Of a DNA stretch of 64,000 nucleotides, positions 4,396-36,617 are shown in pieces. Each line of letters starts with the position of its first letter. Position 1 is the stretch's first letter. The stretch is from Dendrophyllia cribrosa (lineage: Eukaryota > Cnidaria > Anthozoa > Scleractinia > Dendrophylliidae), in NCBI GenBank assembly GCA_024195265.1, contig JAJLRJ010000007.1, positions 26,272,600-26,336,599 on the forward strand, given 5' to 3'. The notes beneath the pieces were generated by a model that saw only the letters and a program-made list of their open reading frames with translations, was not told the DNA's origin and did no database searches. Both the position numbers and the translations under genes were made by a program.

Positions 4396-4945
4396 TATGG
4401 TGGCCCAGCATTCTCATAGTAATATTGCACAAAAATATTACGCGGAAGAGCAAAATCCCAACTGATATTGTTAAAAAAATAAATTAAAAGGAAATATTTC
4501 TATATTTTAATTTATTTCTTAATAAAATTTTGTATTTTATTTTATTTTATTTTTGAAATAAAAATTACATTTTTTATATTAATTTTTTTTAATAAAAAAA
4601 TTAAACTAAAAATTAAGTTATTAAAACGGTAAAAATTAAAAAAAAAGAAAATAAATTAAATAGAAAAAATAAAATAAAAAACGACATGTGAAATCTAAGG
4701 AAAAAAGGCGGCATGAAAAAAAAAAAATAAAATAAAAATCGACATGTGAAATCTGAGAAAAAAATTCGACATGAAAAAAAAAATCCAAAAAAAAAACTAT
4801 TTGATTTTCAATTTCATTTTGAGTTTGCTATGAGAACAATGGGCCGTCAAATGGAAAATCAAAAACCAAATTGAAAATTCGATGTTGCCTGAAAGACCAG
4901 CGTTCTCGTAGCCCGAGATGTCGTTGGTCAGCGGATACGTTTCCT
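4396..4945 (+). repeat. Left terminal inverted repeat of the 14.5 kb transposon
   Basis: Matches the reverse complement of 18315-18861. The outer 69 bp differ at one base. The middle is an A/T-only-like stretch with ACATGTCG-type words (4681-4780), whose mirror lies at 18480-18600. The inner part contains a mirrored reading frame (residues MKIRCCL) that lies upstream of both genes, so both genes appear to take their 5' flank from the same TIR sequence. Confidence 0.85.
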
Positions 4946-5138
4946 GCTAAGCCATCCGGCGTTTCCTTCGCTCGGTTGCCGGTTGCTGCCTTTAATTGCT
5001 TTCTCGTGAGTCTTTTCAGTCAACTCTTCAGTCGATTTCAGCTATCAGACCCTTTTACAGACACAGTTTCCGCTAATACTTGGTTGATCAAAGGCAAGAA
5101 TGAAACGATAGGCGGTTTGGAACGATCTTCAAGTGAAA

Positions 5139-7666: not shown

Positions 7667-8644
7667 TGCACTTAAGTAACAGCAAGTATGAATGTATGGA
7701 AAGATGCACCTATCAACTTTAAGCCAGCCCCACCCAGGCAGCAGATAGGTGGTCAAACATACACAAGACCTTGCCAAGAAGGGGAAGGAGGGTTCACTTC
7801 TTGGTTGTCTCCATTTTAAAATGCCTTCTGTCACTAATTCAAAAGGCCCAAATGGGTCTTACAGTGCTGTGCACCATACATTTACCATTGCCACTTGGGT
7901 AAAGTTTTCGATTGGACAACTTTTGGACAACTGACAAATGAAATCCACAAACTGCGAGCAGAGAAGTCATGGGCATGAACATGAAACTTGACAACTCAGC
8001 CTCTTACAGTTCTTTCATTTTAACTGGTCAGTAGAATGAAGCCATGAAAAAGGTTTCAAAAAAGTTGTGTGAAACTTATCAAAGTGGCAATAGTATGGTA
8101 GTTGTAGTTGTTGCTGTTAGTATAAGCTTATTTCAAAAAAGTCTTCTATACCAAAACAAACTGAAGCTTCTTTGAAATAAGGGAAATGGTCAACACTTTT
8201 GTACTCAGACAGGACACCATTTTACAAAGACTGGTGGTCTCTATGTACCCCCTCTCCCCACCTAAAAAGATGGACTTGTGTCTTGTTGGTATAGCCCCCA
8301 TTCTATCAAGAGTAGAAACTGAGAGAAAGATTCAAATCTTCCTGTGCCGTTTTACTATCAATGCAAGCTTCATGCACACAGAATATTAAAGTCTCATCTT
8401 CAATTTTTAGGCCAAAATATTTTGTCCATTGGACTTATCATATAGGTGGTATTTTGTGCAACCCCCCACCACTACACAAGGTGGCTCCTCATTGAGTATA
8501 CTTGTTATGACCACTTCCCTAACAGTTATTTCACAGTTACTGTTAGGCCCACTGTTAATTATATCCTGCCACTGAAGCAACCCTAATTGGTTGTGAGTTA
8601 CTAGAAACAAGCTCAGTGTTTTTCATCTAGGATATTTGAGTTTC
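7667..8644. other. Noncoding interior of the 14.5 kb transposon
   Basis: 3' flank of the kinase gene. Short ORFs here have no recognisable domain. Nothing else is evident. Confidence 0.5.
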
Positions 8645-8995
8645 TGTTATATTTTGAGAGTATTATGCAGTGATTTTCAGAGTGAAAGAGAATATAAAAC
8701 TTTACTTGATGTTCAACACAAACTATATGGCAGTTTATCGCTAAGGCTAGATGTGTTAATTAAACAAAGGTATTCATTTAAATTTAGTTCAGAAAATTAA
8801 TAAAATTTGGGTTTTGACAGTAACATCAATTTTGTTAAAAATGCTGTTATTTGAGAGTATTATGCAGTGATTTTCAGAATGAAAGATAATATAAAACTTC
8901 AGTTGATGTTCAACGCAAACTATATATGGCAGTCTATCACTAAGGCTAGATGTATTAAATAAAGGTATTCATTAAAATTTAGTTTAGAAATACAG
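8645..8995 (+). repeat. Direct repeat, two units of about 150 bp
   Basis: Sequences beginning GAGAGTATTATGCAGTGATT occur at about 8655 and again at about 8851. They run in parallel for about 150 bp (both include GCTAAGGCTAGATGT or a near form) with moderate divergence and a short AT-rich spacer. This is a local segmental duplication in the noncoding interior. Confidence 0.75.
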
Positions 8996-9157
8996 AAACC
9001 TACAACCTTTATATCAAGAATTTAATGTTACATGTCCAATTGTTGAATGAAGTTCTTGTTCATACACATGTACTTAATTTTTTTGCACAACAGTTACATA
9101 ACTACTTCAAGAGAATTTTGTCCCAGTGTCCGTAGTGTTCTGGGTAGTTGTTCTTAG

Positions 9158-9736
9158 GGACCAGTCATAAATAATTGTTATAGGAGGGGGGTGGTGGGTG
9201 AGAAAAAGGGGGCGCCTGAAATATTTTTCCATGAAAACGGGGGTGGTCTTAAACCTGAAAAATGTTTCAGGGGTGGCTTGAAAATGATTTCAATGTTTAC
9301 ATGTATTCTACACATAACACTTGTACATAATTGAATTCAGCTCCACAAGTGTATTTAAGTTATAAAGTGTAAACATGTTCAACATAAACTTTCTTCAAAT
9401 ATATGTATTCCAGAGTCTGGTTTAATATTTAGGTGTTATAACACATAGTGAAAGTCTTCACACTAAATAGCAATGTCAGTTGTTTTATAGAACAACATCG
9501 ATAGTTCAAGTTTTTAATACCCTCTTAGTCTGTATGAGAATATCACAACATATTAATCTGCCAACCCAGTGGAGCAATGTGTAAAACACAAGTTCCAAAT
9601 CATGATTTTTAATTTTTATAGGGGTGTCCTGAAAAACAGTGGCTTGTCTTTTGGGGCATCCTGAAAAAAAAATCAATTCAGGGAATTTCTCACCCACCAA
9701 CCCTCTTCCATAATTAAATTCCCTTATGGCTCCTTG
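9158..9736. mobile_element. MITE-like element with G/C-rich ends
   Basis: The left end (GGACCAGTCATAAATAATTG...GGGTGGTGGGTGAGAA) is mirrored at the right (TTCTCACCCACCAACCCTC...TTATGGCTCC), giving imperfect inverted repeats of about 50 bp. The interior has repeated CTGAAA-containing words and no coding capacity. Its ends are uncertain by several bases and no duplication is obvious. Confidence 0.5.
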
Positions 9737-9793
9737 TAATATAAATACCAATAATAGCTAGTGGCATCATATTGATATGACAATATTAAGCTA

Positions 9794-10228
9794 CCCCTAG
9801 AAAGTTATATTTAGAATCAACTTTATGTACATTGAATAGTTGAATGGTAAAATATTTCTTGTTTTGAACGTCGCATTTGTGAGTTACAGAGATTTGAATT
9901 TACAAAATGCTAATAAGATGACATCAACCTGGGACTTTGCCATTATTTTTATGCCAATTTACAATGCGCAGTTTACAGCTTTAGGATAATTAATTTGATA
10001 AATACTAAAAATAAACTGTGGATAGTCAATTAATTCGTAAAAAAATATTACCTGGAGGTGAAAACAAGTGGTTGTATAATAAATGATTCCCGGGTTGATG
10101 TCATCTAATTAGCATTTTGTAAATTCAAATCTCTATAACTCACTAACACAATGTTCAAAACAAGAAATATTTTACCATTCAACTGTTCAATGTACATAGA
10201 GTTGATTCTGAAAATAACTTTCTAGGGG
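9794..10228. mobile_element. Palindromic MITE-like element, arms of about 140 bp
   Basis: CCCCTAGAAAGTTA at the left is mirrored by AACTTTCTAGGGG at the right. Inner segments such as the tract around GATTTGAATTTACAAAATGC (9892-9911) reappear inverted near 10110-10130. The arms are 9794-9935 and 10090-10228 with a non-repeated centre. No target duplication was confidently found and there is no ORF. Confidence 0.65.
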
Positions 10229-11300
10229 TGATAGGCAATTTAATGCTGAGTAATAAAATTTCCATTACAACAGCAAACAATATTGAAACCTTATAACAAT
10301 CTGATTGCCTGATTCGCATGGGGGGGGGGGGGGTATTATTAGAGATGAGCTTGGTGATGAGCTTGGTAATAAGCTTTCAGGAATAGAAACGTGTCCGCAG
10401 CATCAGTGGGCTTTATGCCATTGACATCTGGGATAATGCGTTCACATTCAGCTCTCACAGTGCCTGGTAAGAAGTCCTCCCCAATGGACATGACATATGA
10501 CAATTCTGCGACTTCATTTAATGCCTCCAGGGCGACTGGCAAACCTAGTGAAACATGAAATTACTTAACTATTTATATATACATGTATATGGATCCAAGG
10601 AGTAGGGTGAAAATGATAACTGCAGTGGCATACAGATAATTCAGACCTCTAGGGAAATAAAGTTGAACTAAATTTATCCATCAGCAATCTGAAGTTTTCT
10701 AGTAAGTTATTTGAGGTTATAAAAAATCCAATAAACAAGCATGTCGCTTTCCATAACTTTGCAGAATGCAACCAAATTTTTAGTGACACAAAACAGTCAT
10801 CTAGGGTAAAACATTAGGTTCAACTGGTGGGTGAAATTGCATTGACTAGTAACAGTTAAACTTTCCTGGTTCAAGTTAAGTGAAAAGATTGGGTTGTTGA
10901 AATTTTCCCACGTGACAGAGTAGAGGAATTCCAATGGGGAAATGGTTTGAGGTAGAGGTTTGTGTTATCATGTGCAGTGAATTGAATGTAACTTGCTTTA
11001 TAAATGCTGTATGTAAGTGATTAATTACTTAGTTTCATATTATTTTGTGCATGCATAACCATACCACATTCTTGGGCACCATATCTTTCTGGAAAGGAAT
11101 ATAAATGATTGGGGATTCCTTTGGGCATTTGTGCCTCTTTCTGGCTTCTAACTCGGTGAGAATTCCAGATGGTTTCCCTGAAAATGTCCATTTCTTTTTC
11201 TATTACAGGAATGAAGACAAATGCCAGCAGGTTTCTGTCTGTCTGGTTGTCTGGGTCATAGTGCCCTCTCTCCAACAACATTCTTAACTGTCTCTTGAGT

Positions 11301-11554
11301 CACAAGAAGAACGAACACGTTCGTTCTTCTTGTGCTTATGCTATGCTTGTGTCACATTTATGTCAAGTGAGAACGGGGATGAAATAAGCATAGCATAAGC
11401 ACAAGCATAAGCACAAGGCAGTCAACCAAATCATCCGCCAATTTCGTTCATACTGCGCTTGCATATGTCTTTATGCTTATGTTCTGGCGTTCTCACTTGC
11501 TTTTCGGCCGATTATGCTTATGCTTGTGCTTATGCGCTAGTGAAAACCAGCCTT
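11301..11554. mobile_element. MITE-like insertion with a perfect 15-bp-arm hairpin
   Basis: The sequence is built from repeated CTTATGC/GCATAAGC words in both orientations, and one end reads GTGAAAACCAGCCTT (ends 11554). The other end is a 34-bp palindrome at 11301-11334 (15-bp arms, 4-nt loop). It abuts a transposase exon and probably displaced or removed the exon expected to encode the catalytic Glu. No target duplication was identified. Confidence 0.55.
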
Positions 11555-14342
11555 AACGAGGCCAGTGAGGCTGATCAACATACATATAAAAGAATAAATA
11601 AATCGGCCGCCATTATGAAAGGGCTATAAGTAGGTTTATTGGATTATTTTATATCGGACAAGAATATACTTCTTGTTGCTTGTTGGTTTAGATCTCCGTA
11701 TAGATCTTTCATCAATCATTTCAATGACTGCTTCGCCAAATGCAAAAAGAGTAACTTCTGCACACACCACAGAACATGTCTTACTGTATATTTTTCACTC
11801 ACCATGTTTCTTTGAATGAATTAGCAGACAATAACTAAGAAAGAATTATGTCAAGAAATTGCAGACTGTCTGAGCTGCCTGAGTTTGACTAATTAGTACC
11901 TTGTTGTTGGTAGACGGACCATAATGAACTGTGTCATCTGCATCATGATTTGCAGCATTCTCTTGGCTCTTTCTCAAATAGGCATGAATAGTTGCCATGT
12001 GACCAGTCTCCGTCCCCTTATCCAGTCTCAGTTGATTACTGATCACTATTGAAGGTGACAAGAAAAAATACAAACTCAGGCACGGCACACTATCAAATTT
12101 AATTAGAAGGTTATAAATATACCTTATTTATGGCCTTATGTGTTTAACATGAAGAGAACTAAGTAGTAAGTAAGTATCAATATAATCATTTAGTGGTTCC
12201 AATTTGGTTTTGGTTCAAATTTTGTTTTCCTTCATTTTGGCTTCTCGTCATTAATTTACTGATAATCTGAAACGATGGAAATAAAAGTAAAAAATTGAAC
12301 AACACACATGGGAACGAGTCTCATGTGTCCAATATGATACCAGCTGTCAAACTTCACCAGACAAGGTAAAAACTTGTAATAACCATTGAGACTGCTATAT
12401 GCTTTGAATTAAGTTCCCCTTCACCAATGTTGGAAACTACAGTGTATAGAATTTGGTGTACAGCATCAGTATTGATTTATGCTGAATCTTTTAAACAGCA
12501 GTTTACATGTACTTCCATAACCCACTCAGGATGCACACTGCATGGATATCACTCAGAAAAATAAATTCAACATTTTTTATACCTGGTGGCACAAGAAACT
12601 GTCACAGGCCACAGGATAAGAACTACATGTGTAACATATCAGTCAATTGAATGTCCAAATTTACATTTGTTCAATCAACTATTTTGTTGTGTTCCACCAA
12701 CCATGGTGTGTAAGGGAAAAATAATATCCAGCCACCTAGGGCAATGTACTGAAAGTACAAATTGAATGTCAAATGTTATAAAAAAAAGTTAAAATAATAC
12801 CTCTTGAATTGTAAAGATGCTCTAAATACCATCGTCCTATCAGCTTGGGGTCAGAATTTGATGTCCACAGTTTTAAATAAAGGATATAACCACTGAATAC
12901 ATCTTGAAGTCCATAAACAGCCAATGGAAATGTGTTATTCATGAAATCCATTAGCTTGTCATGACCATCTCCTGAGTGTGTGTGGTTAGGCCCTTTCAAT
13001 TTGAAATGCATAGGATTATGGTTATTATTATGGGCACCACTGCACCACCATCTAATTAGCTGATAGCTGTACAGTGTAGACAGGTGCAAATGAAGCCAAA
13101 ATTTAATACCCTCAAAATTGGCCAGTTTATGCATTTAAGACGCAGTCTCCCTTAGATCCTCATATTGATTTTCGCTCCAGAAATAGATTTCGCTTATAAT
13201 TTTTCTGTTAACTTCTATTGGCAAGTAAGTCACAAATATGAAATTAGATCAGAGAAATTCTGCTTTATAAAAATCTTCTGCCGTAAACTTTCCGCGCCCC
13301 CTACTGTCTTCGAAACTCAGTGACGAGATCGTGAATTTTGCCAAAACTACAGCTATTCGCTCTGGACAAAATAGTTCACTTCAAACCTTCAAATTTGCTA
13401 GCTATAAACAGTGACCCTTTATCTTAATAATCAGACGAATTGTAATCATAAACACTAATTAGTATAATAAAACCGAGGATACAAAGTTTATCCATTTTGA
13501 GTACTTATCACAACATGCGATTTGATCCAAATTCAGGGGAAAAAATCTCAAAAGTGGTTCGTACTCACAGGCTTTCCTACATATCATGGGAAAGTTCCAT
13601 CTATCGGCTACTGGAATCTGTTAAAACATTTGGCCGTTATCCAGTTGTTGGTCCGCAAGTGAGTGTTGAACTTGTGCTACTCAGCTAAATACGGCCATAT
13701 TTCCATCGGACATTTGGTGAACGAATGCCAGTAATAAAACACGAAATACGTTTTTCTTCACCATATAGTTTATCCAGGCACGAAGATCAAAGTTTCTCAA
13801 CCAATGTCATCTGAATAGAATCGCTGGATGCGTTTTATAAAAGCAGTCATACAGCAAGATATTTCTGTTGTCCGCGAAGGGAATTCGCAGTCCGCCATGT
13901 TTTCTTAAACCGCTGGCCAGTATTTTTGTCGGCTCACAAACCATATGTTTAGGTTTTGCCGCAAGATCAGAACAGTCGGCGATAATGTTTTCCAGTTTTT
14001 GTATAAGTTGTATTTTCTGTTTTTTGACTTAAAAGAAATTTCAAAATGATTGTAGATTGATTTCAACATTTCTATTCAAAATTTCCTTCGTTTATGTTGC
14101 GTCCTAAAGTCTGTAACAAAACCAAGCTATATTTTCTTGTATGACCATTGGTAGGTCAAGAAACGACCAATATGGCTAGGATTTGCTCAGTTGACGGTAA
14201 ATTAGCACAATTTGTCCCACATTTTGACACAACATTATTAAGCAAGTTATCATCCTTTATAGAAATCGGCAGATATTTTTGCTAGGCCGCTGACCACATA
14301 CATCGCAACGGAGCATACCTGCAATAAACAAACAATAACCTT

Positions 14343-14564
14343 GTGAGCGCACCGACTAGGCCGATTGTATGTTCATTTTTTGGAAGTGGGAAAATAACAT
14401 GCAGAGAATCACGAGGTAAAGAAGAAATGGTTCCCCTTATTCAGTATATTTCTAATGTAACAAATCATTTAAAGAGTTGTCATCTTTCGCGCGAAAAAGT
14501 GACGGAATACGAATTGATACTGGCTAGGGCGGGAAAGTTCAATCTTGCATTGGACTGGACATAG
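14343..14564 (+). CDS. Short ORF inside the TTAA element, unknown
   Basis: A 73-codon open frame starting just beyond the left TIR of the nested element. It has no recognisable domain and no clear splice partners. It could be an exon of the element's gene or chance. Confidence 0.2.
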   Translation: MSAPTRPIVCSFFGSGKITCRESRGKEEMVPLIQYISNVTNHLKSCHLSREKVTEYELILARAGKFNLALDWT

Positions 14565-14609
14565 AGAAGTTATCAATCTGTCCGAAGCACCGTCACAATC
14601 TAAGGCAAT

Positions 14610-15730
14610 ATTAAGTATTGTTCCACATAAGAACGATAGCAAACTTCATTGTTCTGCGGCATTGGCTCTTTCCCACATAGAATATCTTTGATTTCAAGAA
14701 TAGAGGAGGACCTGATGGTTAATAATTATATTTCATTATAAAAATAAAGAAAATCCATTTGCGTCAAATAAATTGTAGGAAATGTTCGTGCTTAACCAAT
14801 CAGAATAGCAGAAGACAATAGCTAATAATTTTGCTTCTTTGATGAAGTTCCCCAAATACAATTTCTTTTAAAAAGTGTATGTTGTGCGATTGGGTCTCAA
14901 ATTACTTGAAACCTTAAAACAATTAGACAAAATGCACCTTGAACCTTAACTTTTTAGCAGTTTTTGAGTCTAGGCCAATGAGATCACTAGTTTTAACAAT
15001 GAAAATTCTTGACATTCCATCGTGTTTGACATTCCATTGCCGTTGGCGCTATCCTTCTTATGCGGATCATTACTTAACGACCTCTGAAGACAGGTCAGTA
15101 TCCTAATCACGAAGGAAGGAAAATTCCCTTGCACTGTAAGAATCCCGTGAACTAGCAGATGGCACAAAAGATACAGATGATGTTTATTACACCTGTACAA
15201 GTTGGGTCGCGTAAGCATTTTTTTTCAGTTGTGCAAAGTTTCCTGTTTTTCAGGTTTCTAAAAGAGGCTTTTAAGTAACGCTCCACATAAGAACTACAGT
15301 AAACTTCATTGTTCTGCGGCATTGGCTCTTTCTCACATAGAATGTCTTTGATTTCAAGAACAGGGGAGGAGTTAATGGTTTATAATTATATTTCAGTATA
15401 AAAATAAAGAATATCCATTTGCGTCAGATAAATTTTAGGAAATGTTTGTGCTTAACCAATCAAAATAGCAGAAGACAGTAGCTAATAATTTTGCTTTTTT
15501 GATGAAGTTCCTGAAATACAATTTCTTTAAAAATTTGCATGTTTTGCGATTGGGTCTTAAATTACATGAAACCTTTAAAAAATCAAACAAAATGCATCTT
15601 GAAACCTAACTTTTAAGCGGTCTTTGAGTCTAGGCCAATGAGATCACTAGTTGTTACAATGGATAAAGTTGACATTCCATCGTGCATTGCCGTTAGCATT
15701 TTCCTTCTTATGCGGATCATTACTTAAAAC
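14610..15730 (+). repeat. Direct duplication of about 0.45 kb within the TTAA element
   Basis: The segment at about 14610-15075 recurs at about 15277-15727 in the same orientation with scattered substitutions. Shared landmarks include TCATTGTTCTGCGGCATTGG and the end CTTATGCGGATCATTACTTA. The spacer between copies is about 200 bp. The divergence indicates an old duplication. Confidence 0.85.
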
Positions 15731-16486
15731 GTAAAGCGAATAAAAGCGAGATAATTTTGAATAAAATTGGGCCACACAAAATTGGTCGTGTTAACTATCT
15801 TCTATTCCAACAATATTTGAGAATGTCACGTAACACAATGAATTAAAGAGATAAATGTTGGAAGGGGTCTGATTCTTTAGTTAGTAAAGTGATTCGAAAA
15901 AACAACAAAGGAACGGAGGAAACAAAATGTAGTACACGAGGTCACACAGTACAGGAAGGCTGCAACTTCAGCTTTGAAACTTTTGACTCCCTACAACGTC
16001 ATCTTGATTGTGGTCAACATGAAAACAAAACAAGCCAAGAATCGGTCTACGATATAAAGTTACGACGTGACTGGGCGGCAAGGTTTTCCACTCTTGTTCC
16101 TGAAAATCATCCGAGGCCGAAATCAGACATTTCCTCAATGGCCATTCCCAGTTCTTCCCTTCCAATGGGTTTGGCACTCCAAAAGCCAAGAGGAGATGGA
16201 ACAAGGTACTCTTCTAAAGTGAAGGATTAATTGAAAGCAATTTGATGTTGGCGAAGAATCAGGATGTAAAGCTGATCCTCAGCAAGTTTCTATCGACATG
16301 AGAAATACCCGGACGGAAGATAACAAACGATTGTTCTCGAGAGATGAGTGGCTGTCAAGAAAGCAGGTCCAGTTCTACGTTTCAAGACTATCCGTGCTAA
16401 AGAGAAAGTAAACTAACACGTCATCTTCCCGTCAAGCAACTATAGATGACTTGGAAGACGTGGTGCACGAAGAAGATTGGTTGCAG

Positions 16487-16495
16487 CAGGTGGAC
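16487..16495. repeat. 9-bp target duplication CAGGTGGAC, left copy
   Basis: Identical to 16603-16611 on the other side of the 107-bp hairpin element. Confidence 0.9.
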
Positions 16496-16602
16496 TAGCC
16501 TCGTACGCAGACGTCCTTAGGGCTCGTCACGCAATCTTTCCTCCCCACAAGAGGGAGGAAAGATTGCGTGACGAGCTCTAAGGACGTCTGCGTAGGAGGC
16601 TA
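16496..16602. mobile_element. 107-bp hairpin MITE with perfect 9-bp target duplication
   Basis: Begins TAGCCTC and ends GAGGCTA. The two halves are near-perfect inverted copies (about 48-bp arms with a short GACGTCC-containing core and ACAAG-like loop). The 9-bp repeat CAGGTGGAC flanks it exactly. A 9-bp duplication is typical of the Mutator/MULE superfamily. It is inserted in the decayed zinc-finger gene between a Val-Asp codon pair and Glu-Val-Tyr, and removing it leaves the frame continuous. Confidence 0.9.
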
Positions 16603-18314
16603 CAGGTGGACGAAGTTTACGAAAAACTATGATGCGTATAATCTTTGTGACTTGCGTAAAAAAAAAAGCAAGCCAGTTAGTTCCTGACATGTAATATGGA
16701 AATGTTAAAAACAACTGCCAATCTTTAAGTTGAAAGACAGAAAAATACAAACTTATTGAAAAACTAGAAAACATGATCGCCAAGTGTTCTGATATTGCGG
16801 CAAAACCTAAACATATGGTTCGTGAGCCGACAAAAAATCTGGCCAGCGGTTTAGGAAAACATGGCGGACTGCGAATTCCCTTCGCCGACAACAGAAATAT
16901 CTTGCTGTATGACTGCTTTAATGAAACGCATCCAGCGATTCTATTCAGATGACATTGGTTGAGAAACTTTGATCTTCGTGCCTGGATAAACTATATGGTG
17001 AAGAAAAACGTATTTCGTGTTTTATGACTGGCATTCGTTCACCAAATGTCCGATGGAAATATGGCCGTGTTTAGCTGAGTAGCACAAGTTCAGCGCTCAC
17101 TTGCGGACCAACAACTGGATGACGGCCAAATGTTTTAACAGATTTTAGTAGCCGATAGATGGAACTTTCCCATGATATGCAGGAAAGCCTGTGAGTACGA
17201 ACCACTTTTGAGATTTTTTCCCCTGAATTTGGATCAAATCGCATGTTGTGATAAGTACTCAAAATGGATAAACTTTGTATCCTCGGTTTTATTATACTAA
17301 TAAGTATTTGTGATTACAATTCGTCTGATTATTAAGATAAAGGGTCACTGTTTATAGCTAGCAAATTTGAAGGTTTCAAGTGGACTATTTTGTCCAGAGC
17401 GAATAGCTGTAGTTTTGGCAAAATTCACGATCTCGTCATTGAGTTTCGAAGACAGTAGGGGTGCGGAAAGTTTACGGCAGAAAATTTGTATAAAGCAGAA
17501 TTTCTGTGATCTAATTTCATATTTGTGACTTACTTGCCAATGGAAGTTTACATAAAAATTATAAGCGAAAACTATTTCCGGAGCGAAAATCAATATGAGG
17601 ATCTAAGGGAGACTGCGTCTTAATACAAACTCCAGCTCACTTTTCAACCAAGTATCCCACTCCCTTATGATAAGTGTCCCTGGCCCTGGGACACTTACTT
17701 GACTATTCAGTGACATATTACATTCGAAAAGCCTTTCAAATGAAAACAAGGAATCATGGCATCACCAAAAGCATGGTAATTTCCTTACCAGTGAAGTAAA
17801 AGTGCCGGTGGCCCCTCTGTGTCGCTTCCTTTTTCCGACATTACCCCGGCGCTCAATACCTTCAGGGTTTACAAGGGTCATCAGGTCATATACCAACCCT
17901 CGTGGCACTGCAAGCTGGTGCTGCTCCCGCAATATTTTATGCATGGACCTATACCCCAGCAGTTGCCCGGGTCCATCACTTTCATCTCGTACAGCTTGTT
18001 CGACTGCTTGCACATCTGTTTCGTATTCAATATACTTTATGCCGAAGTGAGCAATTATTCTAGTGAGCGTTCCAAGACTCCAAGCATATTGAGGATAATC
18101 ACGTTTCACAATGTCTAACAGCTCACTGCGGCTGAGGTTCTGGAGAACATATCGCTGGATGTCACCTTTAAAGCCCTCGTCAGTCTCCCAATCCGGATTT
18201 CTAATTCTGCTCATTTTAAGTTTGTAAAGCTTGAAATCTAAGAGACTATAAAAACGCAAAGTTTGCCGCCATCTTGGATGTTCGGGCCAGCCCAAAGACC
18301 CTGGGAACGGCTTT

Positions 18315-18861
18315 GCAGCATACCCTGTTGACCAAAGGCATCTCAGGCTACAAGAACGCTGGTCTATCAGGCAACATCGAATTTTCAATTTGGTTTTTGA
18401 TTTTCCATTTGACGGCCCATCGTTCTCATAGCAAACTCAAAATGAAATTAAAAATCAAATGTTTTTTTTTTTGTTTTTTGTTTTTTTCATGTCGAATTTT
18501 TTTCTCAGATTTCACATGTCGATTTTTATGTTATTTTTTTTTTTCATGTCGCCTTTTTTCCTTAGATTTCACATGTCGTTTTTTATTTTTTCTATTTAAT
18601 TTATTGTTATCTTTTTTTTTAATTTTTACCGTTTTAATAACTTAATTTTTAGTTAAATTTTTTTCTTAATTTTTTTAATATAAAAAATGTAATTTTTATT
18701 TCAAAAATAAAATAAAAAAAATAAAATACAAAATTTTATTAATAAATAAAAATATAGAAATATTTCCTTTTAATTTATTTTTTTAACAATATCAGTTGGG
18801 ATTTTGCTCTTCCGCGTAATATTTTTGTGCAATATTGCTATGAGAATGCTGGGCCACCATA
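18315..18861 (-). repeat. Right terminal inverted repeat of the 14.5 kb transposon
   Basis: Reverse-complement partner of 4396-4945, ending GCTGGGCCACCATA. It includes the T-rich mirror of the left arm's A-rich stretch. The transposase 5' region starts just inside it, as the kinase does at the other end. Confidence 0.85.
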
Positions 18862-27804: not shown

Positions 27805-27810
27805 CATCTG
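27805..27810. repeat. Target-site duplication CATCTG, left
   Basis: CATCTG lies directly before AGTAGTAGTA at the left end of the Polinton-like element. The same hexamer follows ...ACTACTACT at 32493-32498. Confidence 0.85.
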
Positions 27811-27885
27811 AGTAGTAGTAGGTGATTAGATTTAAGCCCCGCTACGGCCTTCCCCTGCCTTTCCCTCATTAGCTATGCTTAATCA

Positions 27886-27893
27886 TGACGTCA
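27886..27893. promoter_or_regulatory. CRE-like palindrome TGACGTCA, left TIR
   Basis: A perfect 8-bp CREB/ATF-type site in the outer left TIR, mirrored at 32341-32348 although surrounding bases have diverged. Function is inferred only. Confidence 0.35.
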
Positions 27894-28045
27894 CAATATG
27901 CCTTCCTGCATACTAATAAACGGATTCCCTTTTCATGACAATAGGAACAATAGACCAGCCCAAACTTGCCCGCTCTATTCCGACTCACTTCAAAACAAAA
28001 CACAACTGACACAGATTTACTTTACAGACGTAGAGCAAAACAACA

Positions 28046-28117
28046 TGCCTTGGCCAGGACTCGAACCTGGGTTACTGCGGCCACAACGCAGTGTCTTAAC
28101 CACTTGACCATCAAAGC
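28046..28117 (-). tRNA. tRNA-His(GTG)-like gene within the left TIR
   Basis: 72 nt on the minus strand, starting GCTTTGATGG and ending CCAAGGCA. The anticodon arm is CTGCG-TTGTGGC-CGCAG (anticodon GTG, His). The T arm is CCAGG-TTCGAGT-CCTGG with an intact B box. The D arm TGGTCAAGTGGTTAAGACA fits an A box. The acceptor pairs GCTTTGA with CCAAGGC with one G-U and one mismatch. It looks transcribable by Pol III. Its placement inside a viral-type TIR is unusual. Confidence 0.8.
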
Positions 28118-28464
28118 TGTGGATATTATAACCGGATAAAACTAATTAGAGGTTTCCGAAACATTCAAGTTTAGAAGCAATAAAATTGCACAGTATAAAA
28201 AACCGCTTCTTATTCGTATTTTTCGCAACATTCTTATTGCCGCTACATCGCTAGCCTCTATGTCGATTTTCAGTTTGCCAGCCATTTCCAACTTTAAGTT
28301 TTAATTTCTTTTCCGGTAGCTTCAATGTTCAAACTTTTAATTATGCGAACATACACTGAACTAAATTTGCATGAAAAATTAGCACCTCGGAAAAATTAAC
28401 AAAGCAACCAATTACATGCGTTACTCAAACAATAAACCCACACTTTGTTTAAGGTCAAACTATA

Positions 28465-28470
28465 TTTATT
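28465..28470 (-). terminator. Poly(A) signal AATAAA, left TIR
   Basis: AATAAA on the minus strand, at the end of the leftward transcription unit. It is the mirror of 31738-31743. Confidence 0.55.
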
Positions 28471-28631
28471 GATAACAAACAATTTCATAATTATACAGAC
28501 AATTTAAAAGCTTAGATGGAAAGGAACAGACAGAGTTGATTTATTCTTTTTCATCGGGTTTATACAAAGTGCTCTTTGATTCCCTTGGTTTTCTGTGTCT
28601 CACCGCACTGCAATCATCGTTTCGGATGAAA

Positions 28632-29225
28632 TTAATCCTCTTGATTCTTAGAATGTCTGTAACGCCGCGATCGCCTTTTAGGTTTATCATCACCAACATC
28701 TAAGTAATTTACTAATTGGATTCTAGGTCGTTTGCGCTTCGGCGCTGGCGAGGGTGTTTGAACTGTGGGGGGAGGGGTCAAGACGGCTGGATTTGAAGGT
28801 AGTGGCGTTACTGCGGAAGTTTCTTGTATGGTGGGCGCTGGGGAGGGTGTCGCGATAAATGGATTTAAGGGTGTAGAGGTTGTCACCGCTGTTACTGCTG
28901 AGGGTTCTTGTATAATGGTGGGTAAATTAGCTTCCAGATGACTTGCAAAACTTCTTTTCATTTCATCAGACTGTTGACGTCTTCCATTCAATTGATGTTT
29001 AAACGTCAGATATCTGTTTTGCAGCTCAAGGTACTGTTTGGCTTTGTCATATTCCCCAAGGTCTGATCGAGAGAGAAGGCTGTCCATTCTGTCCTGTACT
29101 CCCTTGCATGACTGAGAGAACTGGAGATGTCGAAAGGTTCTGTTGTCTGAGATACTTTAGTAGCTCCTGAGAAATATTGTCTTGTACTTCTGTTTGATCA
29201 AACTGTTTTTCACCGGGTAGTACAT
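28632..29225 (-). pseudogene. Pro-rich basic protein of the Polinton-like element, nonsense codon
   Basis: From an ATG at 29225 an open frame runs 22 codons to an in-frame TAA at 29157-29159. The same frame then continues open for about 175 codons to the stop at 28632, so a nonsense mutation is likely. The distal part has a helical, coiled-coil-like segment (DKAKQYLELQNRYLTFKHQL), a Pro/Thr/Ala-rich middle, and a Lys/Arg-rich C terminus (PKRKRPRI, KPKRRSRRYR) that may bind nucleic acid or act as a nuclear signal. Similar ORFs accompany cnidarian adintovirus-like elements to my knowledge. Function unknown. Transcribed leftward behind the ATPase. Confidence 0.6.
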
Positions 29226-29234
29226 TCGTTCACA

Positions 29235-29956
29235 GTCTACAATTATCTTGTGTGGTTGTTTTTAAATCCACCAGGAGATAACCATAGGGTCTTTGTACAG
29301 CCTCTTCGTACTGGTTTATAAAGAAAGCCGTTTGCCCAGGATACATTTGCTTGGCTAGTCAAAATTTGCAGTTTGTCTCTGGGATTCTTAAAAAGGACCA
29401 AGTAGTGACTGTTTAAACTGATACTTCGGCTTTCCTTCCCCTGATGAAATAGATTCTGTACTATATAAATGGCACTCAGGTTGCGGTGATGAGAACCTCG
29501 TGTAAAAAGGTTTACTATTCGCTTGTCTTTGCCAGCGTCAATCATCTGATCGTCAAAGACGATTAAGTTCCGTTTGTTGACATCAAAATAGGAATCGTGT
29601 TCCAACGCGGGAGGAATACCTTTGACAAATTCAATTTGTGGTATTGTGACTAGCATTTGTATGTACGCGGGCTGCCATTGTGAATAACACCAGACAATCC
29701 TCTCAGGTGGTGGGTTTATCACGTCTGAGGCCTGTTGTAACAATGATTGAACCCAAAACGTTTTCCCCGAACCGGTCATCCCTGCAACCATGCAAGTAAA
29801 AGGGTGCTCGAAGTGAAACCGCTGACACTTTTGTGTAGAAATCGGCATTGCTTTAAATGGAGTGAAAGTAGGACTGGCGTGTTTGTTGGTCATGTGTCTT
29901 TGCATACTATATTTCCTGCTAAATGTCTTCATACAAACGGGACAGGATAAATTCAT
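29235..29956 (-). pseudogene. FtsK/HerA-type packaging ATPase of the Polinton-like element, frameshifted
   Basis: Starts at ATG 29956. The N terminus has a C2H2 zinc finger (CPVCMKTFSRKYSMQRHMTNKH). Then comes a Walker A motif (GMTGSGKT, about residues 58-65) and a Walker B-like segment (LIVFDDQM). This is the A32/FtsK-HerA class of DNA-packaging ATPase found in Polintons, adintoviruses and relatives. A one-base frameshift near 29350 diverts the last third into a frame ending at 29243. The neighbouring frame stays coding-like to a stop near 29235. It is read leftward from the central promoter region. Confidence 0.75.
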
Positions 29957-30418
29957 GTCAACTCAATGAAAGCTCAATGTGAACTGAGAAAGAGGCGAAT
30001 GTTACTCACTTATATAGACTTGTCTAGTTCCTCCTCAATTCTATTGTTTTCACCACCACCACCACCGCAATTTTATTGTTTTCACCACCACCACCACCAC
30101 CACCACAATTCTATTGTTTTCACCACCACCACCACCACCACAACTCTATTGTTTTCACCACCACCACCACCACCACAATTCTCCACCACCACCACCACCA
30201 CCACAATTCTATTGTTTTCACCACCACCGCCACCACCACCACCACCACCACAATTCTATTGTTTTCACCACCACCACCACCACCACCACAATTCTATTGT
30301 TTTCACCTTCACCACCACCACAATTTTATTGTTTTCACCACCACCACCATCCATTGTTTTTTCCTTCTATTCCACGATATAAGACAGTAACTCACTATTC
30401 TTAGCTCATTCTACAGTT
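29957..30418. promoter_or_regulatory. Divergent promoter region with two TATA-like boxes
   Basis: Between the leftward ATPase ATG (29956) and rightward core-like ATG (30419). TATATAAG on the minus strand (30009-30016) lies about 55 bp before the ATPase start. GATATAAG on the plus strand (30376-30383) lies about 36 bp before the other start. Between them is a CAC/ACC microsatellite. The bidirectional arrangement is inferred from these positions. Confidence 0.5.
30047..30352 (+). repeat. Compound (CAC)n minisatellite
   Basis: Runs of CAC/ACC are punctuated by AATTCTATTGTTTT, giving units of about 30-40 bp repeated about eight times. Apparent His-, Pro- or Thr-rich frames across it are artefacts of the repeat. 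Confidence 0.9.
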
Positions 30419-30745
30419 ATGTCTCAAGTAGTAAAGAACAACCGGGGTTTTCTACAGCTCTTAGCTAATGGTCCCGATCATCAGCGTCAATTTCTCTTAA
30501 GGACAGCTTCTCCACAACAGGTTCACGTCTTGTTACATATTCTTTATAATGTTCTTACGAAAAACATTCCCTGTCCTGAAACAAATAAGCGTGTTTTGCT
30601 CCGACATAAGGATGCTCTTATTAATCTGGCCAACCAAAACGTTCCATTCAAGACAAAGAAGCAAATTCTTGTACAAGAGGGTGGTGGCTTTATACAAGAC
30701 TTATTGGCCCCCGTTGTTACAAGCTTGGGCGTTTTGATGCTATAA
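30419..30745 (+). CDS. Small core-protein (pX)-like ORF of the Polinton-like element
   Basis: A 108-aa protein. It has a helical N-terminal half rich in Gln, Leu and His (SPQQVHVLLHILYNVLTKNI), a basic middle (LLRHKDALINLANQ, FKTKKQILVQ), and a hydrophobic Gly-rich C terminus (EGGGFIQDLLAPVVTSLG). The KKQILVQEGGGF...LLAP pattern is what I associate with the adenovirus pX-like core proteins of adintoviruses. Intact. Its stop codon overlaps a TATAAAAG box for the next gene. Confidence 0.6.
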   Translation: MSQVVKNNRGFLQLLANGPDHQRQFLLRTASPQQVHVLLHILYNVLTKNIPCPETNKRVLLRHKDALINLANQNVPFKTKKQILVQEGGGFIQDLLAPVVTSLGVLML

Positions 30746-30748
30746 AAG
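30741..30748 (+). promoter_or_regulatory. TATA box TATAAAAG before the zinc-ribbon gene
   Basis: TATAAAAG lies 59 bp upstream of the ATG at 30807 and overlaps the stop codon of the preceding ORF. This suggests the downstream gene has its own promoter. Confidence 0.5.
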
Positions 30749-30806
30749 AAACTATGCATCGTTGCACTGATCATTTGAAGCTTGTCTTTAACGAGTAAGG
30801 ATCGAT

Positions 30807-31667
30807 ATGAAGAGAAAAGTAGACTGGGATGAAGAAGAAATAGAGAGCGGTACGGGAGACACTATTACCTCCGATGAGGACAACGATGACGAGGAAGATA
30901 ACAAGGAGCCAAGAATTAAAGATGTTTTAAGCAATCTTTCCAAAGCGGTGTCAAAAGAACGTGATTCTGATTTGTTGCATAGCATGGCCGCTTCCAAAGA
31001 TATCCTGTTTTGGGCACCTAGAGGCCAATTACTCCGAAATCAACGCATAATACCCGTGACAAACATCGCAGAGCTGGTTGAGTATGTGCTACTTCCCCAT
31101 AACGATGATGTAGCCCGACCCCGTGCTTTAAATACCTTTTTAGATGGACTCGCAGAGTTGGGAATTGATAAGCGTTTAATCAAGAATAAAAAACTGTTAA
31201 GCGATCTTTTAGAGAAAGAAAAGATCTATCAAGAACAAAAAGAATCCGACAACGAGACTTATGAAGGAGATTCAACCGACAACGAAGGGGAGGAAAGCGC
31301 TTCTGAGAACAGTCCGGCCGATGAGTCTGAAGAGAGCGACCAAGAAATTAAAAGTGATGAAGAGGATGAAGGAAATTCAACCGACAACGAAGAGGAGGAA
31401 AGCAGGAAAATAATTCAGGCAAAAAGTCAAATTCCATGTCATCATTGCGAGAGTTCAAATGTACATGTAACCGGAGTCGTGAAATGTCCCAAATGCTTTT
31501 GGCATGATAATAAAAAGATTTGCCCCATATGCGAGCACAAGATTCCTTTGGACAAAATTAAACACGTGAAAGAAACCCTTGCTCGTTGCGATGATTGCAG
31601 TGCGGTGAGACACAGAAAACCAAGGGAATCAAAGAGCACTTTGTATAAACCCGATGAAAAAGAATAA
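30807..31667 (+). CDS. Acidic zinc-ribbon protein of the Polinton-like element
   Basis: A 286-aa intact ORF. Residues 1-35 are very acidic. A conserved-looking core follows (LFWAPRGQLLRNQRIIPVT, ELVEYVLLP, RALNTFLDGLAELGIDKRLI, KKLLSDLLEKEK), then a long Asp/Glu/Ser-rich linker (about 150-205), then paired zinc-binding motifs (CHHC, CPKC, CPICEH, CDDC). The core block recurs in ORFs of cnidarian adintovirus-like elements as I recall; function unknown. The last ~26 codons lie in the right TIR, so part of them is repeated in inverted form at 28545-28619. Confidence 0.65.
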   Translation: MKRKVDWDEEEIESGTGDTITSDEDNDDEEDNKEPRIKDVLSNLSKAVSKERDSDLLHSMAASKDILFWAPRGQLLRNQRIIPVTNIAELVEYVLLPHNDDVARPRALNTFLDGLAELGIDKRLIKNKKLLSDLLEKEKIYQEQKESDNETYEGDSTDNEGEESASENSPADESEESDQEIKSDEEDEGNSTDNEEEESRKIIQAKSQIPCHHCESSNVHVTGVVKCPKCFWHDNKKICPICEHKIPLDKIKHVKETLARCDDCSAVRHRKPRESKSTLYKPDEKE

Positions 31668-31737
31668 ATCAACTCTGTCTGTTCCTTTCCAACTAAGCTT
31701 TTAAATTGTCTGTATAATTATGAAATTGTTTGTTATC

Positions 31738-31743
31738 AATAAA
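31738..31743 (+). terminator. Poly(A) signal AATAAA, right TIR
   Basis: AATAAA about 70 bp after the zinc-ribbon gene's stop codon, mirrored in the left TIR. Confidence 0.6.
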
Positions 31744-32090
31744 TATAGTTTGACCTTAAACAAAGTGTGGGTTTATTGTTTAGCACGCGTATGTTATTGG
31801 TTGCTTTGTTAATTTTTCCGAGGTGCTAATTTTTCATGCAAATTTGGTTCAGTGTAAGTTCGCATAATTAAAAGTTTGAACTTTGAAGGTACGGTTAAAG
31901 AAATTAAAACTTAAAGTTGGAAATGGGTGGGAAAGCTGAAATCGATATAGAGACTAGCGATGAAGCGGCTATAAGAATGTTGCGGTAAATACGAATAAGA
32001 AGCGGTTTTTTATGCTGTGCAATTTTATTGCTTCTAAACTTGAATGTTTCGGAAACCTCTAATTAGTTTTATTCGGTTATAATATCCACA

Positions 32091-32148
32091 GCTTTGATGG
32101 TCTAGCGTTGTGGCCGCAGTAACTCAGGTTCGAGTCCTGGTCAAGGCA
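32091..32148 (+). pseudogene. Internally deleted tRNA-His-like copy, right TIR
   Basis: Same ends as the left copy (GCTTTGATGG...GTCAAGGCA) and the same anticodon segment (GCGTTGTGGCCGCAG) and T arm, but 14 nt are missing from the D arm and the 5' side of the anticodon stem. It could not fold as a normal tRNA. The TIR copies have diverged since insertion. Confidence 0.8.
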
Positions 32149-32340
32149 TGTTGTTTTGCTCTATGTCTGTAAAGGATATCTGTGTCAGTTGTGTTTTGTT
32201 TTGAAGTGAGTTGGAATAGAGCGGGCAAGTTTGGGTCGGTCTATTGTTTTGAAATGGGTGCGGAAGGTAATTATGTACATATCAATGATTTACCTAGGCA
32301 CTATCCCTAGTCATTTATTAACACAAAAGGTATAGGTAAT

Positions 32341-32348
32341 TGACGTCA
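32341..32348. promoter_or_regulatory. CRE-like palindrome TGACGTCA, right TIR
   Basis: Mirror of 27886-27893, in a part of the TIR that is otherwise poorly conserved between the arms. Confidence 0.35.
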
Positions 32349-32492
32349 TGATTAATATATATTAATAAGTTACCTATCCCAAACTACGTCATCACCTAGG
32401 CACCTAATCAACCTATCCACTAATGCATATTAATGATTTACCTATCCTTACCTATCCATTTGCGAGGTTAAATCCATACTTATACTACTACT

Positions 32493-32498
32493 CATCTG
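32493..32498. repeat. Target-site duplication CATCTG, right
   Basis: Direct copy of 27805-27810. Confidence 0.85.
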
Positions 32499-33874: not shown

Positions 33875-36617
33875 CCGTATTTTCCGGTGTATAAGTCGAC
33901 CTCTGAAACCACGAAAATTTGCCCCAAAAATCGACCTCGTCTTATACACCGGCCAAAACTCAAGAGCTGTCGGTTCATAAGGAAATTAGCATAACAATGG
34001 CACCCTGAGATTACTAGTAACATCGAAGTGACATTTATTGCAGTAAAGGAGCAACGATCGATCTTGGTTTCACTTTCCGAGCAAAATACGCGTTCTTACC
34101 TTTACGAGTGTGAATTCTTCACATTAGGGATTTGTCATTAGAAATGTTCATTTTCCCGCTCAATGCGTGCAAGTTTGAGGTTATTTTGTGCTTGAAATCC
34201 ATGACTAATAATACTTCTGAAGGAAACAAATCGCACATCGATCGACAAAACGCTAGAAACTTGGTAACCGCACACTTGCTTAGCAACCCAGCATTGGCAA
34301 CACGCGCGCGCGAGCCAATAAAATTCTCTAAAACAAGTCTATTGTGTCATCTTTTGTTAGTCTTGTTGTTGGGAATAACGAAATGCCAATCAGAAAGCTG
34401 AAAAACAATAGAGGGATGCATTTCCTAGTACTGTTAATCACTGAATTAGATCAATTGAAATCACTTAGTCTCATCTTTGTTTCAAACAAGATTTCAGCTT
34501 ACCTGCTTTGGAAAATGCCTTCGAAACGTATAAAGTATTCCGCTAAGTTTAAACTGAGTGTTGTCCAGTTTGCTGAAAAGTCGAACAACTGTGCTGCAAG
34601 TAGAGAATTCTGTGTAAACGAGAAGCTGGTGAGAGACTGGCGACGTCAAGTAGAAAAACTAAAGTGCATGCCGAAGAACAAATGTGCTGATCGAGGGAAG
34701 CAGTGTTACTGGCCAGAAATAGAAGACAGCCTTGCCAAATGGATAGAAGACCAACGAAGCTGTGGCTACATTGTGACGCGGAATCTAATCCGAATCAAGG
34801 CCAAAGCATTGGCAAGTGAACTGAAAACGAGCGTCTTCAAAGCAACCAACAGCTGGTGCACGAGGTTTCTTCGCCGAAAGAACTTTGTGTTACGGCAAAA
34901 GACCAAAATCGCCCAGAAACTGCCAGACGATTTAGAGGACAAGATAACAAGATTCCACAGATTCATCATCAAACATCGCAGAGAGAAACAGTATGAACTA
35001 GTCCATATTGGAAATATGGATGAGACCCCGGTGTGGTTCGACATGCCATCGGCGAAAACCGTGAACTCTCGAGGAGAGAAGACTGTGGCGATCAAGACAA
35101 CTGGCCATGAGAAGTCACGATTCACTGTCGTGTTGTCTTGCCTCGGCGATGGAACGAAATTGAAACCAATGGTAGTTTTTAAAAGAAAAACCATGCCTAA
35201 AGAGAAATTTCCACCTGGAGTAGTTGTCCACATCCATCCAAAAGGGTGGATGGATGAAGAAGGATTGAAAATCTGGATACAGAAAGTTTGGTGTGCGAGA
35301 CCAGGAGGCCTGCTTCGAAAGAAAAGTTTATTAGTGTGGGACTCATTCAGAGCTCATCTGGTCGACTCTGTTAAGCAAGCTTTGAAGGAAACCAACACCG
35401 ACATTGCAGTCATTCCAGGAGGACTCACTAGCGTTTTGCAACCCCTTGATGTGAGCCTCAACAAACCCTTCAAGGATCGACTTCGTGAAAAGTGGACGGA
35501 ATGGATGATCGAGGGACAGAAGGAGTACACTGCTGGTGGAAATTTGAAGGCCGCTTCACTAAGCACTGTCTGTCAATGGGTCAACGAAGCATGGAAAGCT
35601 ATTCCTGCGGACATTGTTTCACGCTCCTTCAAGAAATGCGGAATCACGAATGCAATGGATGGTACCGAAGATGACATTCTATGGAATGAAGAGCAATCGA
35701 CAGCTCCTGAAATCCCTGTGGCTGAAGAGGAAGAAGAATTCGGAGACATCTACGATGACCGATTGTCAGAAGAACAATGGCGAGACTTGTTTGGAGAAAG
35801 TGACAATGAGGAGTTTGAAGGATTCTGAACAATTAATGAGACACAGACTGATATGACATTTTTCTTTATTCACTTTTTTGTATACAGAATTGTAAAATTT
35901 ATAGTTACCCGGTAATTCATGTAATCGGTATTCATAGCGTAACTTGTTTAAAAAAAAAAGTGATTATTGTGGACAACAATCGATCAACACGAGGCACTGA
36001 CTTTATTCACTTTGTTTGTATATAAAATTGTAAATAGTTTAGTCCATCTTATTCGTGTAACATAGCTTTAAGAATATTAAATGTTTGTGGACCAAAATAT
36101 CAGTTTATTTTGAATTGAACTGTTGAAGGGGGACCTAGAACCGGCATCTTTTTCTAATCGAAATGAGCACGTGCTTCTGGCTACTGGTTTCCAGTGTTGT
36201 CCGAGCTTAGCTGGGTTACTAAGCATCCAAGATGGCGGCCTGTTTACAGACTCGTTCGATCTATGGCTTCATGCGTTCATTTTACGGCATTTCTTCATTG
36301 TAAAAAGCCTCAAAATGACCCACAAACATAACAAAAGCAATTTTAGAGCAGGTATCTTAAGAATTTGGATTCATATTTGTCAATTTATTAACGAAGTGCA
36401 TTCGTTCGCGTGTTAGTCGATCAATGTGGTTCATTCAGTTTACTTTGACTTTGGGTCTCGAAGATGCTCTGCAAGAGAGACAAGACTTGTTTTCCTAGAA
36501 AATCGTAAAGAATTTTTCTACTCATACTTGATGCCAAATCAAGAAAATCCTAATTTTTAGGCTCAAAAAGTGGGGTCGACTTATACACCGGTTCGACTTA
36601 TACACCGGAAAATACGG
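33875..36617. mobile_element. Complete pogo/Tigger-type transposon, 2.74 kb
   Basis: Terminal repeats CCGTATTTTCCGGTGTATAA (about 24 bp, perfect) with TA on each side (33873-33874, 36618-36619). The right end has a second tandem copy of the CGACTTATACACCGG part. It contains one intact transposase gene. It is inserted into the LINE coding region between a Pro-Ser-Ile and Lys-Tyr-Leu reading, which confirms both ends. The intact ORF and matching TIRs suggest recent or possible activity. Confidence 0.9.
34515..35828 (+). CDS. Pogo/Tigger-type transposase, intact, 437 aa
   Basis: The start is placed at MPSKRIKYSAKFKL, where the helix-turn-helix DNA-binding region begins, since upstream frame has no motif. 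The N-terminal region (1-60) is a Psq/CENP-B-like HTH. A second HTH (about 65-135) follows, with CWPEIEDSLAKWIEDQR and SWCTRFLRRKNF. The DDE region shows NMDETPVWFDM (first Asp), LLVWDSFRAHL (second) and TSVLQPLDVSLNKPFKDRL (third). The tail is very acidic. No stop or frameshift. It is the only visible gene of the element. The family cuts and pastes at TA. Confidence 0.9.
   Translation: MPSKRIKYSAKFKLSVVQFAEKSNNCAASREFCVNEKLVRDWRRQVEKLKCMPKNKCADRGKQCYWPEIEDSLAKWIEDQRSCGYIVTRNLIRIKAKALASELKTSVFKATNSWCTRFLRRKNFVLRQKTKIAQKLPDDLEDKITRFHRFIIKHRREKQYELVHIGNMDETPVWFDMPSAKTVNSRGEKTVAIKTTGHEKSRFTVVLSCLGDGTKLKPMVVFKRKTMPKEKFPPGVVVHIHPKGWMDEEGLKIWIQKVWCARPGGLLRKKSLLVWDSFRAHLVDSVKQALKETNTDIAVIPGGLTSVLQPLDVSLNKPFKDRLREKWTEWMIEGQKEYTAGGNLKAASLSTVCQWVNEAWKAIPADIVSRSFKKCGITNAMDGTEDDILWNEEQSTAPEIPVAEEEEEFGDIYDDRLSEEQWRDLFGESDNEEFEGF

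What the first reader, a model, noticed from the sequence alone, without database searches (positions are those of the whole stretch)
27805..32498. Miniature Polinton/adintovirus-like element with only a packaging and core gene set
Seen: AGTAGTAGTA termini, perfect 6-bp CATCTG duplication, long TIRs, ATPase plus pX-like plus zinc-ribbon plus Pro-rich basic genes in 4.7 kb. Established: full Polintons and adintoviruses are 12-20 kb or more with PolB, integrase, protease and capsid genes. Inference: this is a satellite-like or internally reduced lineage moved and perhaps packaged by a helper. It could represent a defined class if other copies share the layout.
Basis: partly seen in the sequence, partly recalled or inferred. 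Interest (0 to 1): 0.85.

Follow-up and report, generated by a model that had tools for sequence, protein, structure and literature searches.

The report
Miniature coral Polinton, probable viral satellite
A short virus-derived mobile element, present in many copies in what looks like a coral genome, has lost the genes for copying and inserting itself but keeps a DNA-packaging motor under natural selection, so it probably lives as a parasite (satellite) of larger virus-like elements with matching ends.

Summary
The observation largely holds. An element at 27811-32492 (4682 bp) has AGT...ACT ends, long inverted repeats and a perfect CATCTG duplication. It carries a packaging-type ATPase, a pX-like protein and an acidic zinc-ribbon protein. 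The 'Pro-rich' gene is the C-terminal part of the ATPase, split off by a frame change.

It is not a one-off deletion. In 15 of 18 fetched loci of this type all three genes (some broken) keep order and orientation; 8 of 18 have their own 6-bp duplications, a ninth a palindromic one. None of these 9 nor the window matches local Polinton PolB, integrase, capsid, penton or protease proteins. dN/dS is well below 1 (ATPase core 0.14, pX 0.27, zinc-ribbon N-half 0.29). One protein of a fuller Polinton covers domains that here sit in two proteins, so the layout was reorganised, not just cut.

A decayed integrase-bearing Polinton end shares its last ~260 bp with this element (82%, 100 bp exact), while the genes compared have only 47-58% DNA identity. 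Best reading: a helper-dependent, satellite-like Polinton lineage with its own packaging module. Helper dependence is likely; packaging into helper capsids is inferred. Many terminal repeats carry a tRNA-His gene.

The parts
27805..27810 (.). left copy of the 6-bp target-site duplication CATCTG
27811..28619 (+). left terminal inverted repeat; starts AGTAGTAGTA; its inner end includes an inverted copy of the last codons of the zinc-ribbon gene
28046..28117 (-). tRNA-His (anticodon gtg) inside the left TIR
   Evidence: ARAGORN; Rfam RF00005 56.7 bits; also predicted in both arms of L009, L013, L016, L017, L020, L024, L025
28632..29087 (-). 'Pro-rich' ORF, 151 aa: C-terminal part of the ATPase protein, out of frame with the ATPase core in this copy; its start is homologous to the N-domain of a 252-aa Polinton protein
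29243..29956 (-). packaging-type ATPase core with an N-terminal C2H2 finger, 237 aa here; 448-aa open frames in other copies
30030..30349 (.). CACCACCACC-rich variable tandem repeat between the divergent genes
30419..30745 (+). pX-like protein, 108 aa
   Evidence: 39% to L027 pX-like protein, E 3e-25
30807..31667 (+). acidic protein with C-terminal 8-Cys zinc ribbon, 286 aa; its N-half is homologous to the C-domain of the 252-aa Polinton protein
31589..32492 (-). right terminal inverted repeat; ends TACTACTACT; outer ~280 bp shared with the integrase-bearing Polinton end L036
32091..32148 (+). degenerate tRNA copy in the right TIR (short deletion)
   Evidence: Rfam 27.3 bits, below the gathering score of 29
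32493..32498 (.). right copy of the 6-bp target-site duplication CATCTG

Best explanation
This is one copy of a miniature, non-autonomous Polinton/adintovirus lineage that behaves like a viral satellite. SHOWN: repeated insertion with 6-bp duplications; AGT...ACT TIRs; a recurring set of three genes (ATPase with fused C2H2 and helical tail, pX-like, zinc-ribbon) with no PolB, integrase, capsid or protease match; coding sequences with dN/dS well below 1; terminal sequence shared with an integrase-bearing Polinton in the same genome. INFERRED: the helper supplies integrase, PolB and virion proteins in trans, recognising the shared ends. The satellite's own ATPase, with the pX-like and zinc-ribbon proteins, gives its small genome preferential loading into helper particles, much as phage satellites redirect helper packaging with their own terminase subunit (recalled). 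The TIRs turn over by recombination with helper ends.
Confidence: 0.62

Rival explanations
1. Passive non-autonomous Polinton derivative: mobilised by a helper only through its ends; the genes are hitch-hiking remnants without function in the element.
For: TIR-sharing elements with different or no coding content seem to exist (L030, L031; R-type end pairs 1-8 kb apart without a listed ATPase hit, both capped), so ends alone may suffice for movement. Several copies share a frame-changed ATPase, and many copies have broken frames.
Against: dN/dS 0.14-0.29 in the main parts of three genes, lowest in the most diverged ATPase pairs; related proteins from other corals; 448-aa open ATPase frames in 5 of 18 fetched loci and 451 aa in a sixth.
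Confidence: 0.2
2. One segment of a multipartite Polinton-type virus whose other segments (polymerase, capsid) are integrated separately with the same ends.
For: Inverted pairs of the R-type end enclose 1-8 kb without a listed ATPase hit at several places (e.g. C12:35090107-35098170); the gene set is complementary to a polymerase/capsid segment.
Against: The one such enclosed element read through, L031, holds a Mutator-like transposase, and L030 looks like a short foldback; Polintons with their own ATPase, pX-like, PolB and capsid-like genes exist in the same genome (L027, L028). The other enclosed elements were not read.
Confidence: 0.07
3. Helper-interfering element kept because it protects the host (defence-like, as proposed for virophages and Polinton-like viruses).
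For: A packaging module without a capsid could poison helper particles (my inference); protective roles are proposed for protist Polinton-like viruses (abstract start of PMC12220804).
Against: No host benefit tested; copy number and young TIRs fit selfish spread equally well.
Confidence: 0.08
4. Autonomous transposon using an unrecognised replication and integration function in the zinc-ribbon or ATPase protein.
For: The zinc-ribbon protein has no Pfam hit and no viral fold match (poor model).
Against: Parts of it are homologous to a Polinton protein; ends and 6-bp duplications are of the Polinton type; an integrase-bearing element shares the terminal sequence.
Confidence: 0.03

Closest known systems
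Polinton/Maverick and adintovirus elements (here L027, L028, L036 of the same genome)
   Same: AGT...ACT TIRs and 6-bp duplication (Polinton hallmark recalled), ATPase (55% to L027), pX-like protein (39%), domains of the 252-aa protein, terminal sequence shared with L036
   Different: 4-6 kb instead of 15-20 kb; no PolB, integrase, protease or capsid match; ATPase fused to C2H2 and a tail; divergent transcription; tRNA-His in many TIRs
Phage-inducible chromosomal islands (SaPI/PICI type; recalled)
   Same: small integrated element that lacks replication/virion genes of its helper but keeps its own packaging component
   Different: unrelated proteins and host; redirection of packaging not shown here
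Virophages and transpovirons (recalled, apart from abstracts)
   Same: small dsDNA elements that depend on, or travel with, a larger DNA virus
   Different: virophages encode capsids; transpovirons encode a helicase; neither has this gene set
MITEs and other non-autonomous DNA transposons (recalled)
   Same: mobilised in trans through TIRs; a TIR-only derivative of this family seems to exist (L030)
   Different: this element keeps three genes with low dN/dS

Membership tests
Polinton/Maverick (autonomous) | long TIRs with AGT...ACT ends and 6-bp target duplication | tested here: met
   window plus 8 further copies by script and L009 by eye, palindromic
Polinton/Maverick (autonomous) | protein-primed PolB | tested here: not met
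   no tblastn match in 10 of 10 bounded elements, control loci positive
Polinton/Maverick (autonomous) | rve integrase | tested here: not met
   no match in 10 of 10; present in L033 (rve E 5e-14) and L036 (42% to L033; rve itself only E 0.049)
Polinton/Maverick (autonomous) | FtsK/HerA-type packaging ATPase | tested here: met
Polinton/Maverick (autonomous) | capsid proteins (MCP, penton) and protease | tested here: not met
   no match to local capsid-like, penton-like and protease-like proteins (named by my reading, no Pfam hit) in 10 of 10 elements; very diverged forms not excluded
Viral satellite | depends on a helper for replication or virion | not testable with these tools
   inferred from missing genes and shared ends
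Viral satellite | own genes kept under selection | tested here: met
   dN/dS 0.14, 0.27, 0.29, with the sampling caveats given
MITE / non-coding non-autonomous element | no selected coding capacity | tested here: not met
Phage-satellite-like packaging redirection | own packaging component directs loading of helper capsids | not testable with these tools
   ATPase present and constrained; loading not shown

The most novel reading that the evidence does not exclude
An animal-genome class of viral satellites that steals the virions of Polintons (adintoviruses) by encoding its own packaging motor and core proteins under helper-matched ends: a eukaryotic counterpart of phage satellites that redirect packaging. 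It is probably spread among stony corals, and some lineages carry a tRNA-His gene in their terminal repeats.
Probability: 0.4. Interest if true: 0.88.

Novelty: new variant of a known kind. Interest (0 to 1): 0.74.

Why it matters
Whether Polintons make infectious particles is a long-standing question. A satellite that keeps only packaging and core genes under selection would be indirect evidence that such particles are made and worth stealing. It also supplies natural probes (ends, 4-6 kb genome size) to look for in virion fractions, and it would extend packaging-based satellite parasitism to animal viruses.
Full report
OBSERVATION. The element lies at 27811-32492 (4682 bp) between two copies of CATCTG (27805-27810, 32493-32498). 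It begins AGTAGTAGTA and ends TACTACTACT. The inner inverted repeats are 94% complementary over 517 and 144 nt, 92.8% over 676 aligned positions; the outer ~150-250 bp differ between the arms. Pfam finds Pox_A32 (E 1.1e-6, above its cut-off) and a weak C2H2 finger in the 237-aa ORF, and nothing significant in the other ORFs. The left arm holds a tRNA-His (ARAGORN; Rfam 56.7 bits); the right arm holds a degenerate copy (27.3 bits, below the gathering score).

THE WINDOW'S GENOME. The window is part of a 627-Mb, 22-contig assembly. The named proteins among the listed hits are from the corals Oculina patagonica and Porites, so I take it as a coral-like genome; the species is not given.

COPIES. 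The ATPase has 154 matches in the genome with 150 of 1275 candidates scored. Of 141 rows I grouped, 64 are at 79% identity or more. I fetched 20 stretches: 18 around ATPases of this type and 2 around distant ATPases. In 15 of the 18 the ATPase, pX-like and zinc-ribbon genes are all detectable in the same order, ATPase on the opposite strand to the other two, several with broken frames; L012 has a pX fragment only, and L014 and L024 gave no pX or zinc-ribbon hit. Eight of 18 have AGT...ACT ends and a perfect, non-palindromic 6-bp duplication by script: L011 CGCATT (4868 bp), L013 AATTAT (5236), L016 AACTTT (5034), L018 GGCGAA (6007), L020 CACATA (5323), L022 GTTGTA (5429), L024 ACTTTG (4021) and L025 CACCTG (4814). 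L009 has CGCGCG by eye, a palindrome and so weaker. The other 9 of 18 gave no duplication. Arm-to-arm identities are 96-99.8% in 7 of the 10 bounded elements and 90-93% in the window, L024 and L025, so some insertions are recent. None of the 10 matches PolB, integrase, capsid, penton or protease proteins taken from Polintons of the same genome; each of 5 control loci is hit, self-hits and cross-hits together.

GENE COUNT. In L011, L013, L017, L018 and L019 the ATPase frame is 448 aa and in L021 451 aa; the window's ATPase aligns to residues 1-200, and the window's Pro-rich ORF to residues 291-448 (291-451 in L021). The window copy therefore has one ATPase gene whose frame changes after about residue 200. 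Several other copies match the window protein across this point (98%, 94%, 86%, 86% and 85%, the last three with a stop inside), so the change seems to have been carried through amplification.

SELECTION. Pairwise NG86 dN/dS, ratio of means: ATPase residues 1-200, 17 copies, 0.14; pX, 14 copies, 0.27; zinc-ribbon first 120 codons, 12 copies, 0.29; zinc-ribbon sequences of 275 aa or more, 8 copies, 0.46; ATPase tail, 10 copies, 0.54. The four most diverged ATPase pairs have 0.09-0.12, and several of the closest pairs lie near or above 1 (e.g. 1.28 and 1.01), which fits constraint while the lineage replicates and drift after insertion. Caveats: loci were picked by ATPase similarity, pairs share ancestry, and pairs with dS of zero were dropped.

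RELATION TO FULLER POLINTONS. L027 encodes PolB (PF03175 E 5.7e-6, just over the cut-off), ATPase, a pX-like protein, a 252-aa protein, an adenain-like protease and a capsid-like protein (the last two names are my reading, no Pfam hit). Its ends were not read. Window against L027: ATPase 55% (E 1e-58), pX 39% (3e-25), zinc-ribbon N-half 25% (3e-7), Pro-rich start 36% over 36 aa (2e-5). With family profiles, residues 21-75 of the 252-aa protein match the ATPase tail (E 7e-6) and residues 122-212 match the zinc-ribbon protein (E 4e-7). One Polinton protein is thus divided over two proteins here, and transcription is divergent instead of co-directional. This needs rearrangement, not only deletion. 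In the protein collection 9 of the 120 listed ATPase relatives (of 1874) carry both the C2H2 finger and the tail motif (patterns of my own). Most of these hits name no source organism; by eye the Oculina protein P0008 has the finger and the Porites evermanni protein P0048 the tail, so the fusion is probably not private to this genome.

ENDS AND HELPER. The outer TIR differs among copies but is alike within most bounded copies. One subtype (L018) has a ~1.5-kb TIR with an ORF of 164 aa stop to stop in it. The window's R-type end also occurs at C16:40426678-40426846 (76% over the 193-bp query), 9.6 kb beyond an ATPase of the L027 type (53%, one stop inside). The 2.7 kb before that end (L036) encode an integrase in two frames (tblastn 42% to the rve integrase of L033, E 9e-36; rve on its own only E 0.049) and a 245-aa protein homologous to the L018 TIR ORF (29%, E 1e-19). 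They then run without another end motif into a terminal block 82% identical to window 32210-32492 (E 2e-78) with 100 bp exact. Coding DNA of ATPase and pX is only 58% and 47% identical between the window and L027. Non-coding ends more alike than genes point to exchange of ends with, or selection for recognition by, an integrase-bearing Polinton. I did not see that element's left end or polymerase, and this copy looks decayed.

OTHER ELEMENTS WITH THE SAME ENDS. L030 looks like a short foldback of TIR sequence, and L031 carries a Mutator-like transposase (E 2.7e-86) between such TIRs. Pairs of R-type ends 1-8 kb apart occur at several other places without a listed ATPase hit (both capped) and were not read. 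A multipartite arrangement is therefore not excluded.

NOVELTY. Non-autonomous elements are a known kind, and viral genomes of this group lacking recognisable polymerase and integrase are mentioned in print (passages of PMC11071296; PMC10120064 says many of its elements lack a detectable polymerase). A repeated 4-6 kb lineage with only ATPase, pX-like and zinc-ribbon genes was not seen in the listings and passages of the library searches made. I file it as a new variant of a known kind.

Noticed in passing
window 28046-28117: A tRNA-His gene (56.7 bits) sits in the element's TIR; ARAGORN also predicts it in both arms of 7 of 18 fetched loci of this type, once in 3 more, and not in 8. Function unknown: captured gene, Pol III promoter or replication aid.
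   Followed up: partly
window 4396-18861: A 14.5-kb element with ~465-bp TIRs starting TATGGTGGCCCAG and a 6-bp duplication CATTAC, with an ORF having a weak HTH_21 match (17762-18436) near its right TIR.
   Followed up: partly
window 13139-17619: A second TIR element (about 875-bp arms, 95-96%) with a TTAA duplication nested inside the previous one.
   Followed up: partly
window 34332-35828: DDE_1/Tc5-type (pogo-like) transposase frame of 498 aa without stops.
   Followed up: no
L031 275-7289: TIRs of this family enclose a Mutator-like transposase frame of 807 aa and a coding-like tandem repeat; a different Polinton seems, by my reading, to start right after it.
   Followed up: partly
L018 2478-2969: An ORF with a CxxC...DPSQ..H..C motif lies inside the TIR, homologous to an end-proximal gene of an integrase-bearing Polinton (L036).
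   Followed up: partly
genome C5:15273474-15432840: Ten ATPase matches of the 40-42% group lie within 160 kb of one contig, a possible Polinton cluster or array.
   Followed up: no
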